A DNA stretch of 59,602 nt from a virus. Made by a program: the position numbers and the translations under genes. Numbering within the stretch: position 1 is the stretch's first letter; every line of letters begins with the position of its first letter. The DNA is taken from IMG/VR virus record IMGVR_UViG_3300044695_005052, positions 1 to 59,602 of that record; one strand, written 5' to 3'. The notes under the pieces were generated by a model, which worked only from the letters and a program-made list of their open reading frames with translations, did not search any database and had not been told where the DNA came from. Shown piece after piece: positions 3,113-12,506 of the stretch.

Positions 3113-3119
3113 GGTAGGT

Positions 3120-3148
3120 ACTATAACCGATCAGGAAGGGATAGTCGC
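3120..3148 (-). promoter_or_regulatory. Leaderless sigma70-type promoter, copy 1
   Basis: On the minus strand: -35 GCGACT, 17-bp spacer, -10 TATAGT, then seven bases to the ATG at 3112. The spacer core TCCTGATCGGT is shared with the four following copies. Confidence 0.8.
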
Positions 3149-3155
3149 GGGTTTT

Positions 3156-3617
3156 TTAGTTTTTTCTGAACAAATGCACCATAGAGCAGCCGGACACCCG
3201 AGCCTTGTCGAACACCCGAGCTTTGTCGTACACCCGAGTTTTGTCGTACACCCGAGCCTCGTCGAACACCCGTGCGTAGCCGTACACCTGAGCTTTGTCG
3301 TACACCCGAGCCTCGTCGAACACCCGTGCGTAGCCGTACACCTGAGCATAGTCTAGCACCTGAGCCATGTCGTACACTAGAGCGTTGCCGTATACCCGTC
3401 CGTAGTTAAACACCCGTCCGTAGTTAAACACCCGTGCATGGCCGTACACCTGAGCATAGTGTAGCACTTGAGCATAGTCGTACACCCGAGCGTCAGGGCC
3501 AATGTACGCAGTATCAGCTACTGTTGCAGTATCGGCCACCCAGCCCCCACCGTCTGGGTGTTGGTGAGCAGGCACAGGGCCATTACCATCTGCAAAATCA
3601 AAGGTTGTGATGCTCAT
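3156..3617 (-). CDS. Hexapeptide-repeat (left-handed beta-helix) protein
   Basis: 153 aa. After an N-terminal segment (about 1-35) with HQHPDGGGW, residues about 36-145 are an uninterrupted period-6 repeat of the form [AG]-[RQL]-V-[YFL]-[DGN]-x, about 18 turns, such as ARVYDYAQVLHYAQV. This is the hexapeptide repeat of left-handed parallel beta-helices; related repeats are common in phage and prophage proteins, where function is rarely known. No acetyltransferase-specific elements follow. The repeat DNA is itself duplicated. Sole gene behind promoter copy 2. Confidence 0.7.
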   Translation of the reverse strand: MSITTFDFADGNGPVPAHQHPDGGGWVADTATVADTAYIGPDARVYDYAQVLHYAQVYGHARVFNYGRVFNYGRVYGNALVYDMAQVLDYAQVYGYARVFDEARVYDKAQVYGYARVFDEARVYDKTRVYDKARVFDKARVSGCSMVHLFRKN

Positions 3618-3624
3618 GGTAGGT

Positions 3625-3653
3625 ATTATAACCGATCAGGAGGGGATAGTCAC
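3625..3653 (-). promoter_or_regulatory. Leaderless sigma70-type promoter, copy 2
   Basis: Minus strand: -35 GTGACT, 17-bp spacer, -10 TATAAT, seven bases to the ATG at 3617. No Shine-Dalgarno sequence fits in the gap. Confidence 0.85.
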
Positions 3654-4098: not shown

Positions 4099-4105
4099 GG
4101 TAGAT

Positions 4106-4134
4106 ACTATAACCGATCAGGAAGGGATAGTCAC
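4106..4134 (-). promoter_or_regulatory. Leaderless sigma70-type promoter, copy 3
   Basis: Minus strand: -35 GTGACT, 17-bp spacer, -10 TATAGT, seven bases to the ATG at 4098. Confidence 0.85.
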
Positions 4135-4153: not shown

Positions 4154-4480
4154 TTAGCATACATACTCCTTACCAAGTCCATAGCCACAACCATAGCCAT
4201 AGCTATAGCCATCGCCATACCCATCGTCATCGCCATAGCCATAGCCAGAGTCATTGCCATAGCCATAGCCAGAATCATTGCCATAACCATAGCCAGAGCC
4301 ATAGCCATCATCAAAGCCATAGCCAGCACCATAGCCATAGCCAGAGCCATAGCCAGAGCCATAGCGAGCACCAGAGCCATAGAGAGCACCATCGCCAGAG
4401 CCATCGCCAAAGCCATAGCCATAGCCAGAGCCATAGCCATAGCCATCGCCACTAACAGTCATATCACCTCTGATTAGCAT
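4154..4480 (-). CDS. Gly-Tyr repeat protein E (MLIRGDMT family)
   Basis: 108 aa. The N-terminus [17 protein letters not shown] is the family signature; the rest is an alternating G-x repeat with x mostly Tyr, then Ser, Asp, Ala, Phe, and a KEYVC end. At DNA level it is the hexamer GGC-NNT: the Gly codon is nearly always GGC and the partner codon nearly always ends in T, so copies differ at coding positions. The start overlaps the preceding gene's stop (ATGCTAA). Low-complexity composition suggests a disordered, self-associating protein; no function is known. Confidence 0.65.
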   Translation of the reverse strand: MLIRGDMTVSGDGYGYGSGYGYGFGDGSGDGALYGSGARYGSGYGSGYGYGAGYGFDDGYGSGYGYGNDSGYGYGNDSGYGYGDDDGYGDGYSYGYGCGYGLGKEYVC

Positions 4481-4671
4481 AAATCACTCGTGAAAGCGCA
4501 GATGTGTTCGTTCCCATAGAAGTCTTCCACATAACCGAAGAAGTCTGTATCGGTTTCGAAACTTCTACGGAATTCTCCATTCCAAGATTCTGTTTCGTTA
4601 CAGATAGGACACTTAGTCCAAGTATCATCCAAACCAGAATCAAGCAGGATATATGTTGCTTTGTTATTCAT
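4474..4671 (-). CDS. Hypothetical small protein with Cys pair
   Basis: 65 aa. TKCPICNETESWNGEF contains a C-x2-C knuckle and there are two further Cys near the end (HICAF, DLC), so a single zinc site is possible. The C-terminal TGC-TAA junction is of the same form as the ends of the GYG genes, which suggests the GYG module was inserted here by recombination at that junction. No family recognised. Confidence 0.55.
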   Translation of the reverse strand: MNNKATYILLDSGLDDTWTKCPICNETESWNGEFRRSFETDTDFFGYVEDFYGNEHICAFTSDLC

Positions 4672-4949
4672 TGGTGGGGTTCCGATTTGATTTCATCACC
4701 GTTCCAAACCCTGCCATTTTGGATCGTCTTGTTCACCTGAATGATCCTAGGTGAGGTATCTTCGTCTTCATAGATAAGTTCTGCGGTATCAGCAACGAGG
4801 GCAATATCGTTGACCCGCTCTTCGATCCAGAAACCAGTCATCTCTTGACCAAAGCCATTGTCATCATCGACGCGCAACTTAACATCGTAAGTGCCGCCAA
4901 CTCGGTCTGCCAGAACGGTTAGATCACGGATCAGTTGTGAGAGTCTCAT
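4668..4949 (-). CDS. Hypothetical early protein
   Basis: 93 aa. MRLSQLIRDLTVLADRVG opens a helix; the middle is acidic and beta-rich (YDVKLRVDDDNGFGQEMTGF, then ALVADTAELIYEDED). Short proteins starting with LIxxL ... G-x-YDVxLR are common in phages and unassigned. First gene behind promoter copy 4; overlaps 4474..4671 by 4 nt. Confidence 0.6.
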   Translation of the reverse strand: MRLSQLIRDLTVLADRVGGTYDVKLRVDDDNGFGQEMTGFWIEERVNDIALVADTAELIYEDEDTSPRIIQVNKTIQNGRVWNGDEIKSEPHQ

Positions 4950-4956
4950 GGTAGGT

Positions 4957-4985
4957 ATTATAACCGATCAGGTGGAGGTAGTCAC
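4957..4985 (-). promoter_or_regulatory. Leaderless sigma70-type promoter, copy 4
   Basis: Minus strand: -35 GTGACT, 17-bp spacer, -10 TATAAT, seven bases to the ATG at 4949. The -35 box overlaps the stop codon (TGA) of the upstream GYG gene 4982..5236. Confidence 0.85.
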
Positions 4986-5236
4986 GGGTTTTTTGAGAAA
5001 TTACTTACATCCTCCTCACCATAGCCATAGCCAGAGCCATAGCCATAGCCAGCGCCATAGCCAGAGCCATAGCCATAGCCAGAGCCATCGTCAGAGCCAT
5101 CGCCATAGCCATCGCCAGAGCCATCGCCATAGCCATCGCCATCGCCATAGCCAGAGCCAGCGCTATAGACATAGCCATAGCCATCACCAAAGCCATAGCC
5201 AGAACCCCGTCTAGTCATATCACCTCTGATTAACAT
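4982..5236 (-). CDS. Gly-Tyr repeat protein D (MLIRGDMT family)
   Basis: 84 aa: [19 protein letters not shown], then the G-x repeat including YVYSAGSG (shared with gene A). It ends DVSNFSKNP instead of the family DVC or YVC. Comparison with gene E shows that about 8 nt containing the stop codon are missing here, so the reading frame runs into the copied upstream part of the promoter cassette and stops at the TGA inside GTGACT. Function unknown. Confidence 0.6.
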
Positions 5237-5394
5237 ACATACTCCTTACCATAGCCAGAGCCATAGCCATAGCCACAGCCATAGCCATAGCCATCGCCAT
5301 AGCCACAGCCATAGCCATAGCCAGAGCCACAGCCATAGCCATCGCCACAGCCAGAGCCATCGCCACTAACAGTCATATCACCTCTGATTAACAT
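5230..5394 (-). CDS. Gly-Tyr/Cys repeat protein C (MLIRGDMT family)
   Basis: 54 aa. [17 protein letters not shown], then G-x repeats in which Cys is frequent (five G-C-G units), ending GKEYVC. Start and stop overlap both neighbours through the 7-nt ATGTTAA junction: gene B ends ..TATGTTAA, and this gene begins at the ATG. Same hexamer GGC-NNT structure as its paralogues. The Cys-rich version could cross-link or bind metal; unproven. Confidence 0.6.
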
Positions 5395-5582
5395 ACATCC
5401 TCCTCACCATAGCCATAGCCATAGCCATCGTCAGAGCCATAGCCGGAGCCATCGTCAGAGCCATAGCCAGCGCCATAGCCATAGCCAGAGCCAGAGCCAT
5501 CGCCAAAGCCATAGCCATAGCCAGAGCCATAGCCATAGCCATAACCATCGCCAATTCTAGTCATATCACCTCTGATTAACAT
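5388..5582 (-). CDS. Gly-Tyr repeat protein B (MLIRGDMT family)
   Basis: 64 aa. [17 protein letters not shown] opens the family signature, followed by G-x repeats with Asp-Asp interruptions (GSDDG twice), ending GEEDVC. ATGTTAA overlaps at both ends couple it to genes A and C, giving a head-to-tail chain with no intergenic DNA. Confidence 0.6.
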   Translation of the reverse strand: MLIRGDMTRIGDGYGYGYGSGYGYGFGDGSGSGYGYGAGYGSDDGSGYGSDDGYGYGYGEEDVC

Positions 5583-5800
5583 ACATCCTCCTTACCATAG
5601 CCAGAGCCATCGCCATAGCCAGAGCCATAGCCAGAGCCAGAGCCATAGCCATAGCCATCGTCAGAGCCATCGCCATAGCCATCGCCAGAGCCATCGCCAT
5701 CGCCAGAGCCAGCACTATAGACATAGCCATAGCCATAGCCATCGCCATAGCCACAGCCATAGCCATAGCCAATTCTAGTCATGTTGCCTCGGATCAACAT
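5576..5800 (-). CDS. Gly-Tyr repeat protein A (MLIRGDMT family)
   Basis: 74 aa. MLIRGNMTRIGYGYGCG, then G-x repeats including YVYSAGSG, ending GKEDVC. It begins 4 nt after the stop of 5804..6127 and is the first of four chained GYG genes in the operon of promoter copy 5. Upstream CGAGGC could serve as a ribosome site. Confidence 0.6.
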   Translation of the reverse strand: MLIRGNMTRIGYGYGCGYGDGYGYGYVYSAGSGDGDGSGDGYGDGSDDGYGYGSGSGYGSGYGDGSGYGKEDVC

Positions 5801-5803
5801 AGG

Positions 5804-6127
5804 TCAGTTAGCCCAAGGAGCCTTTTCCCAAGCTTTCACGGCTTCATCGGAAACCAGAGCGACTGCGGTAACATTCCGCACTTCAATCGTCGAGGGGGGG
5901 CCGACACGGCAATGCTTCGACGGGCCAGTTGCGGCGAGGCCAAAACATCCCTTCACATCCGCAGACCAATAGATAGCCATCCGAGCATCCTGCAAGGTGA
6001 TGGTATCACCAGAGTAGTCGTCGGTGTAGCCAAAGAAGACTCCACGGTGAAGGGTAGTGACGAGGACAGGGGTGAGATTAGAGTTGTTATTCATGATTCT
6101 TTTTCTTTCTTGTTGTTGCTGCACCAT
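5804..6127 (-). CDS. DUF6948-like small phage protein
   Basis: 107 aa from the first ATG; an in-frame ATG at 6094 is a possible alternative. The core VLVTTLHRGVFFGYTDDYSG, then LQDARMAIYWSAD, GLAATGP and VTAVALVSDEAVKAW has the order (TT-HRGVFFG ... DAR-A-YW ... GPS ... VTAV ... EA--AW) of small phage beta-rich proteins that I recall as the DUF6948 type; function unknown. It is first behind promoter copy 5, with 10 nt between -10 and ATG. Confidence 0.6.
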   Translation of the reverse strand: MVQQQQERKRIMNNNSNLTPVLVTTLHRGVFFGYTDDYSGDTITLQDARMAIYWSADVKGCFGLAATGPSKHCRVGPPSTIEVRNVTAVALVSDEAVKAWEKAPWAN

Positions 6128-6137
6128 TGCAGCAGGT

Positions 6138-6166
6138 ATTATAACCGATCAGGTGGAGGTAGTCAC
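6138..6166 (-). promoter_or_regulatory. Near-leaderless sigma70-type promoter, copy 5
   Basis: Minus strand: -35 GTGACT, 17-bp spacer, -10 TATAAT, ten bases to the ATG at 6127. The spacer (CTCCACCTGATCGGT core) is identical to copy 4. Confidence 0.85.
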
Positions 6167-12432: not shown

Positions 12433-12506
12433 TGGAGCAAGTAAAGGGACTCGAACCCTTGTCTTCAGCTTGGAAGGCTGAGGTAATACCCTTATACGAT
12501 ACTTGC
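12433..12506 (-). tRNA. tRNA-Gly(UCC)
   Basis: Acceptor GCAAGTA/TACTTGC, T-arm with GGGTTCGAGTCCC, anticodon loop CTTCCAA inside CAGCCTTCCAAGCTG, giving TCC. Discriminator T, encoded CCA. Reads GGA and probably GGN. Confidence 0.93.

What the first reader, a model, noticed from the sequence alone, without database searches (positions are those of the whole stretch)
4154..5800. Five chained Gly-Tyr repeat genes with a constant MLIRGDMT start
Genes A-E are 54-108 aa, linked by ATGTTAA/ATGCTAA overlaps. The DNA is GGC-NNT hexamers: the Gly codon hardly changes while the partner codon varies at positions 1-2 (Tyr, Ser, Asp, Cys, Ala, Phe) and keeps T at position 3. This pattern of coding change without silent change suggests repeat-driven diversification. 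Composition (GYG, DG, SG, CG) suits condensate or dityrosine/disulfide-forming proteins. I know no described phage family like it.
Basis: partly seen in the sequence, partly recalled or inferred. Interest (0 to 1): 0.68.

Follow-up and report, generated by a model that had tools for sequence, protein, structure and literature searches.

The report
Phage module with hypervariable Gly-Tyr protein
These five small Gly-Tyr repeat genes belong to a widespread two-gene phage module that appears undescribed: a small protein with a predicted RNA-binding-type (Sm-like) fold, followed by a floppy repeat protein whose sequence differs even between phages that are otherwise identical around it.

Summary
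The five ORFs are real (minus strand), but only E-D-C-B form one chain; two unrelated ORFs separate A. They belong to a near-obligate phage module. Of the 80 best matches to a DUF6948 gene (window 5804-6127) in IMG/VR, 75 have a (Gly-X)n array gene just downstream; 4 of 5 exceptions are contig ends; 6/511 control ORFs show this. Conversely, 69/81 independently found arrays have DUF6948 upstream. DUF6948 is predicted to have an Sm/LSm-like fold (pLDDT 91). X is Tyr, Ser or Asp in 91% of units in every codon dialect, while silent sites are homogenised within each array: variation is 12-fold higher at X positions 1-2 than at silent positions. Among eight isolate phages, array genes differ in steps of 6 nt and in order; Ymer and Amona differ in the array although 5.8 kb around it is identical. 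The 'LIRG' start is a conserved peptide anchor. Best reading: arrays turn over by in-frame hexamer recombination under selection for a Y/S/D mix, giving an acidic, aromatic, disordered partner of the Sm-like protein, perhaps a condensate or brush. That function is inferred. A reverse-transcriptase diversifier, phase variation and a one-phage oddity are not supported.

The parts
5804..6127 (-). DUF6948 gene, first gene of the module; predicted Sm/LSm-like fold (domain about 5807-6091)
   Evidence: Pfam PF22253 E 1.9e-20; AF2 pLDDT 91.3, pTM 0.84; Foldseek and VIA lists almost all Sm/LSm
5576..5800 (-). array gene E, MLIRGNMT-(GX)n-GKEDVC, 74 aa
5388..5582 (-). array gene D, 64 aa, overlaps E
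5230..5394 (-). array gene C, 54 aa, Cys-richest (5 Cys), overlaps D
4982..5236 (-). array gene B, 84 aa, overlaps C; lost the common C-terminus and reads into the next promoter-like module
4154..4480 (-). array gene A, 108 aa, separated from B by two other ORFs
4474..4671 (-). small ORF without family match, overlaps the start of A (ATGCTAA)
4668..4949 (-). small ORF without a confident family match, between B and A
6137..6153 (-). core of promoter-like module (CCTGATCGGTTATAATA) upstream of DUF6948
   Evidence: 5 copies, 0.19 expected in shuffles; promoter function not tested
4956..4972 (-). copy of the promoter-like module upstream of ORF 4668-4949, which leads to A

Best explanation
A conserved two-gene phage module: DUF6948, a small protein with an Sm/LSm-like fold, translated together with one or more (Gly-X)n array proteins. 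SHOWN: the near-obligate gene pairing; a short conserved N-terminal peptide on the array protein (LIRG type here); arrays restricted mainly to X = Tyr/Ser/Asp in every codon dialect; silent sites homogeneous within an array; arrays that change length in 6-nt steps and change order while their flanks stay identical. INFERRED: arrays turn over by slippage or homologous exchange in register 6, which never breaks the frame; this homogenises silent sites, while selection keeps the Tyr/Ser/Asp mix but not its order. The product is a disordered, acidic, aromatic sticker-and-spacer polymer that docks on the Sm-like partner through its N-terminal peptide and gives it a multivalent brush or condensate-forming shell, probably in an RNA-related early function.
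For: Pairing: 75/80, 9/9 in bacterial genomes and MAGs, reciprocal 69/81, control 6/511, median distance 40 nt. Sm-like fold. Composition and dialects: X = Y .39, S .275, D .24; one Gly codon and one X third base per array (median 1.00) in GGC-NNC, GGC-NNT, GGG-NNC, GGT-NNC and GGA-NNC dialects. Departures from the array majority at hexamer positions 1-6: 0, 0.024.298.326.029; ratio of X1+X2 to silent positions 11.8, 95% CI 8.3-18.9; a simple neutral duplication/deletion simulation gives no excess at X. Turnover; block repeats 210 versus 68 expected. Conserved N-terminal peptide with 12 different codon pairs for its Arg/Lys-Gly. Net charge of A-E -3 to -10.
Against: No experiment shows expression, binding or condensates. 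DUF6948 has no significant sequence match to Sm/Hfq families, its Z scores (6 to 7) lie within the range in which chance matches occur, it lacks the usual N-terminal helix in the model, and it is neutral in charge. The N-terminal peptide type follows the DUF6948 type, but linked inheritance alone explains that. Isolate arrays come from short-read assemblies.
Confidence: 0.42

Rival explanations
1. The array is a multi-acceptor tail: Tyr, Ser and Asp are side chains that can be modified (for instance ADP-ribosylated or phosphorylated), and the array soaks up or displays such modifications.
For: In about 20 relatives the array is fused to a C-terminal domain whose model best resembles ADP-ribosyltransferases of the Arr/PARP type on second look (rows 1-14 all ART fold, best Z 6.0). 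X is dominated by hydroxyl or acidic residues.
Against: Foldseek itself gave no significant hit for that domain (best E 1.8), Z 6.0 is within the chance range, and the window genes lack the domain. Catalytic residues were not checked.
Confidence: 0.12
2. The array is a silk-, elastin- or eggshell-like structural polymer (beta-sheet or dityrosine-linked) used in the virion or on the cell surface.
For: Strict Gly-X alternation with Tyr and Ser resembles fibroin-type repeats (general knowledge).
Against: About one X in four is Asp and Ala is only 1%; Cys is rare; the genes sit among small genes of unknown function or recombination genes, and no virion evidence was found.
Confidence: 0.12
3. The arrays are under diversifying selection (for example to escape recognition by hosts or rival phages), rather than merely order-free turnover.
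For: Extreme variability between isolates that are otherwise identical locally.
Against: The variation stays inside the same three-residue alphabet and composition; no recognition partner is known. The data do not separate this from neutral order turnover.
Confidence: 0.15
4. Selfish or neutral hexanucleotide repeat that happens to be open in frame, with no protein function.
For: Tandem repeats expand easily; block duplications are seen.
Against: Protein-level constraint across five codon dialects, a conserved N-terminal peptide with varied codons, near-obligate linkage to DUF6948, and overlapping or near-overlapping start.
Confidence: 0.05

Closest known systems
Borg element Sm ribonucleoproteins with amino-acid tandem repeats (PMC9879509)
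   Same: Sm/LSm-type protein of an extrachromosomal element coupled to fast-evolving, in-frame tandem repeats that are predicted to be disordered
   Different: There the repeat is an N-terminal extension of the Sm protein itself, has units of 4-17 residues, and occurs in archaea; here it is a separate, adjacent gene with a two-residue unit, in phages
Pfam DUF6948 (PF22253)
   Same: The upstream gene is a member; the family is in Pfam as a domain of unknown function
   Different: No paper in the library mentions it, and its pairing with arrays and its Sm-like fold are not in the Pfam description line returned here
Hfq and LSm proteins with disordered tails
   Same: Predicted fold of DUF6948; disordered, partly acidic partner segment
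   Different: No sequence similarity detected; the partner is a separate and hypervariable gene
Silk fibroin-type (GX)n proteins
   Same: Strict Gly-X alternation and DNA-level homogenisation (comparison from general knowledge)
   Different: X is Tyr/Ser/Asp rather than Ala/Ser; acidic; no evidence of a structural role

Membership tests
Pfam DUF6948 (PF22253) | profile match above the curated cut-off | tested here: met
   window 5807-6127: 73.2 bits versus cut-off 27
Sm/LSm/Hfq | five-stranded Sm-type barrel | tested here: inconclusive
   model pLDDT 91; nearly all top hits are Sm/LSm, Foldseek probability about 1.0 but E 8e-3, Z up to 6.8; Z under 8 can be chance
Sm/LSm/Hfq | N-terminal helix before the barrel | tested here: not met
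   the model starts with a strand; helices at 49-55 and 82-89
Sm/LSm/Hfq | Sm1/Sm2 sequence signature detectable by profile | tested here: not met
   no Pfam LSM/Hfq hit, no PDB sequence hit, hhalign with E. coli Hfq not significant
Sm/LSm/Hfq | hexameric or heptameric ring; RNA binding | not testable with these tools
   needs biochemistry
Diversity-generating retroelement | reverse transcriptase gene | tested here: not met
   no PF00078 match in the window record, the L113 record or the complete Ymer and Amona genomes
Diversity-generating retroelement | broad NNY variation from adenine mutagenesis | tested here: not met
   91% of X residues are Y, S or D
Phase-variable contingency locus | repeat changes shift the frame or switch expression | tested here: not met
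   all length differences among eight isolates are multiples of 6
Borg-type amino-acid tandem-repeat protein | in-frame repeats that evolve faster than flanks | tested here: met
Borg-type amino-acid tandem-repeat protein | repeat within the Sm protein itself | tested here: not met
   separate downstream gene
RTX calcium-binding repeats | nonapeptide GGxGxDxUx | tested here: not met
   strict G-X alternation without GG doublets in the window arrays

The most novel reading that the evidence does not exclude
Phages broadly carry a dedicated RNA-protein condensate system: an Sm-like ring plus a separately encoded, compositionally constrained but order-free polymer whose gene is kept hypervariable by in-frame hexamer recombination.
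Probability: 0.25. Interest if true: 0.88.

Novelty: categorically new. Interest (0 to 1): 0.72.

Why it matters
If right, a common but unstudied phage gene pair links a small protein of RNA-binding-type fold to a low-complexity polymer. It would offer a natural experiment on what disordered proteins need, composition or order, because arrays with the same composition and different order occur in phages that are otherwise identical around the locus. It also explains many metagenomic contig ends and mis-annotated frames. The parts are known kinds (Sm-like fold, tandem-repeat disorder); the pairing as a phage system was not found described in the open-access library searched, so 'categorically new' refers to the system, not to its parts.

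Tried and rejected
(1) That MLIRGDMT is only a Shine-Dalgarno and stop-codon overlap translated by mistake (suggested by L113): rejected as sole explanation, because [ILV][ILVT]?[RK]G precedes arrays in 50 of 85 type-I loci and 2 of 92 others, with 12 codon pairs, only 15 of 49 containing GAGG. In the window the same bases may also serve as a ribosome site, so which ATG is used stays open. (2) DGR: no reverse transcriptase, wrong variation. (3) Homology of DUF6948 with the two C-terminal domains fused to arrays: hhalign negative. (4) Codon preference as cause of GGC: GGC is the rarest Gly codon in this phage. (5) Direct relatives by tblastn or blastn in isolate phages: no hit, low-complexity filter; the profile-style search also failed, so patterns and DUF6948 were used instead. 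(6) One search failed on coordinates; nothing is drawn from it. (7) My first pattern scan fixes T at X position 3 and C or T in Gly codons, so it was not used for codon statistics.

Full report
WHAT IS THERE. The window is a 59.6 kb virus record with genes of a T4-like tailed phage by my reading of its ORFs. Five minus-strand ORFs encode (Gly-X)n proteins at the stated coordinates. E, D, C and B overlap each other by ATGTTAA. A does not continue that chain: ORFs 4668-4949 and 4474-4671 intervene. The chain is headed by a DUF6948 gene at 5804-6127 (Pfam 1.9e-20). A promoter-like module, CCTGATCGGTTATA[AG]TA, stands before DUF6948 and before ORF 4668-4949, and occurs five times in the region (0.19 expected). 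Pfam and PHROGs give nothing above cut-off for the arrays.

THE MODULE. One contig found by a repeat pattern (L113) had a DUF6948 gene directly before two array genes with the LIRG start. I therefore searched with DUF6948. Contigs end within 600 nt downstream of DUF6948 in 30 of 80 cases, but upstream in 2, as expected if assemblies break in arrays. All nine DUF6948 loci in bacterial genomes or MAGs (Rhodopseudomonas, Acidobacteria, Aequorivita, Myxococcales, Syntrophomonadaceae, Nitrosomonas, Leptolyngbyaceae and two Bacteroidetes-group MAGs) have it as well. Independently, 69 of 81 arrays found by DNA pattern with at least 1 kb upstream have DUF6948 within 1.5 kb upstream. Other ORFs in the same loci have an array behind them in 6 of 511 cases. 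Isolate phages with the module include Iodobacter phage PhiPLPE (array unannotated), Pectobacterium phage Taid and relatives, Vibrio phage IKEMa6-1 and Chlorobiaceae phage CV-1-33, where the array was annotated in another frame.

PROTEIN-LEVEL CONSTRAINT. In arrays anchored by DUF6948 (not chosen by codon), X is Tyr 39%, Ser 28%, Asp 24%. Each array uses essentially one Gly codon and one third base for X (medians 1.00), but the choice differs between phages: GGC-NNC, GGC-NNT, GGG-NNC, GGT-NNC, GGA-NNC. In 92 distinct arrays (2776 units) departures from the array's own majority are 0, 0, 2.4, 29.8, 32.6 and 2.9% at the six hexamer positions. Positions 4 and 5 vary 11.8 times more than the two mostly silent ones (95% CI 8.3-18.9); a simple neutral duplication/deletion simulation shows no such excess. 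Tyr is never absent, Asp is absent once, and 90 of 92 arrays have Tyr, Asp and one of Ser/Asn/Thr. So silent positions are homogenised while the Tyr/Ser/Asp mix is kept. In the window GGC is used against the phage's codon habit.

TURNOVER. Repeated blocks of six units are in excess (210 versus 68 expected). Among eight Pectobacterium/Dickeya phages the array gene is 162 to 270 nt, all differences multiples of six. Ymer and Amona, about 92 to 96% identical along their aligned genome, are 100% identical for 1704 nt on one side and 4057 nt on the other side of the array gene, yet the array differs in length (222 versus 204 nt) and order. Metagenomic pairs behave alike: L041/L112 have 95% identical aligned DNA with unrelated arrays; pairs at 99.9-100% have identical arrays, including the window and L005. 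Caveat: the Ymer-genus genomes are short-read metaSPAdes assemblies (PMC11445585).

ANCHOR PEPTIDE. Array proteins behind type-I DUF6948 carry [ILV][ILVT]?[RK]G before the array (50 of 85; 2 of 92 behind other types), with 12 codon pairs for the last two residues. The window's MLIRG[DN]MT is of this type. Type-II partners start M[SP]KL[IN][KN]P. The peptide type follows the DUF6948 type, which shows co-inheritance and is compatible with docking but does not prove it.

FOLDS. AlphaFold2 models DUF6948 with pLDDT 91.3. The top PDB matches are almost all Sm/LSm proteins: archaeal Sm 1i8f (probability 1.00, E 8e-3), Lsm1-7 (VIA Z 6.8, rmsd 2.0 over 61 residues) and 3by7, described as Sm/LSm-like (Z 6.7). 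Sequence comparison does not support it on its own, so I call it Sm-like in fold, not a member of the family. Many relatives' arrays are fused to a C-terminal domain; 4 of 24 copies weakly match DUF7666, and its model resembles ADP-ribosyltransferases weakly. The window's genes lack this domain.

MECHANISM. Shown: pairing, composition constraint, silent homogenisation, hypervariability, anchor peptide. Inferred: turnover by in-register slippage or recombination (every hexamer exchange keeps the frame; Ymer and Amona encode an Erf-like annealing protein and an exonuclease VIII near the locus), order-free selection on composition, disorder, docking on DUF6948, and a condensate or brush function. 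I put this whole chain at 0.42.

KNOWN PARALLEL. Borg elements of archaea carry Sm proteins with fast-evolving disordered tandem repeats (PMC9879509). Here the repeat part is a separate gene, in phages. No paper in the library mentions DUF6948 or such arrays in phages; subscription papers and preprints were not searched.

Noticed in passing
window 3119-3135, 3624-3640, 4105-4121, 4956-4972, 6137-6153 (-): Five copies of a promoter-like module with TATA[AG]T; in four the ATG of the next ORF lies only 7 nt after the -10 box, which would give leaderless early mRNAs. Possibly a mobile early-promoter cassette.
   Followed up: partly
window 3156-3617 (-): ORF with YdcK beta-solenoid repeats (PF18836, E 1e-16): a second tandem-repeat protein next to the arrays.
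   Followed up: no
window 12433-12506 (-): The phage's own tRNA-Gly has anticodon TCC and should not read GGC, the codon used in the arrays.
   Followed up: no
L134, L140, L171, L180, L223 and others, downstream of the array: A C-terminal domain (FWRS..GG..GPLxLC..LHAT..PxKWKGERxWxVAL) fused to arrays; its model resembles Arr/PARP-type ADP-ribosyltransferases weakly (Z 6.0).
   Followed up: partly
L019, L030, L037, L049, L082, L088, L119, L121, L224, L229, L230: A second, different C-terminal domain fused to arrays (IDxxPTxIxSVxxNxAKG...FAHGxTL...WHxxLTGSC), without a confident Pfam match in the one copy scanned.
   Followed up: partly
L206 about 1190-1408 (Iodobacter phage PhiPLPE) and L208 4280-4525 (phage CV-1-33): In deposited records the array gene is missing from the annotation or is annotated in another frame (MAMALAM).
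   Followed up: yes
L007, L016, L038, L064: Tandem sets of 4 to 7 array genes with a shared N-terminus in one phage, as in the window.
   Followed up: no
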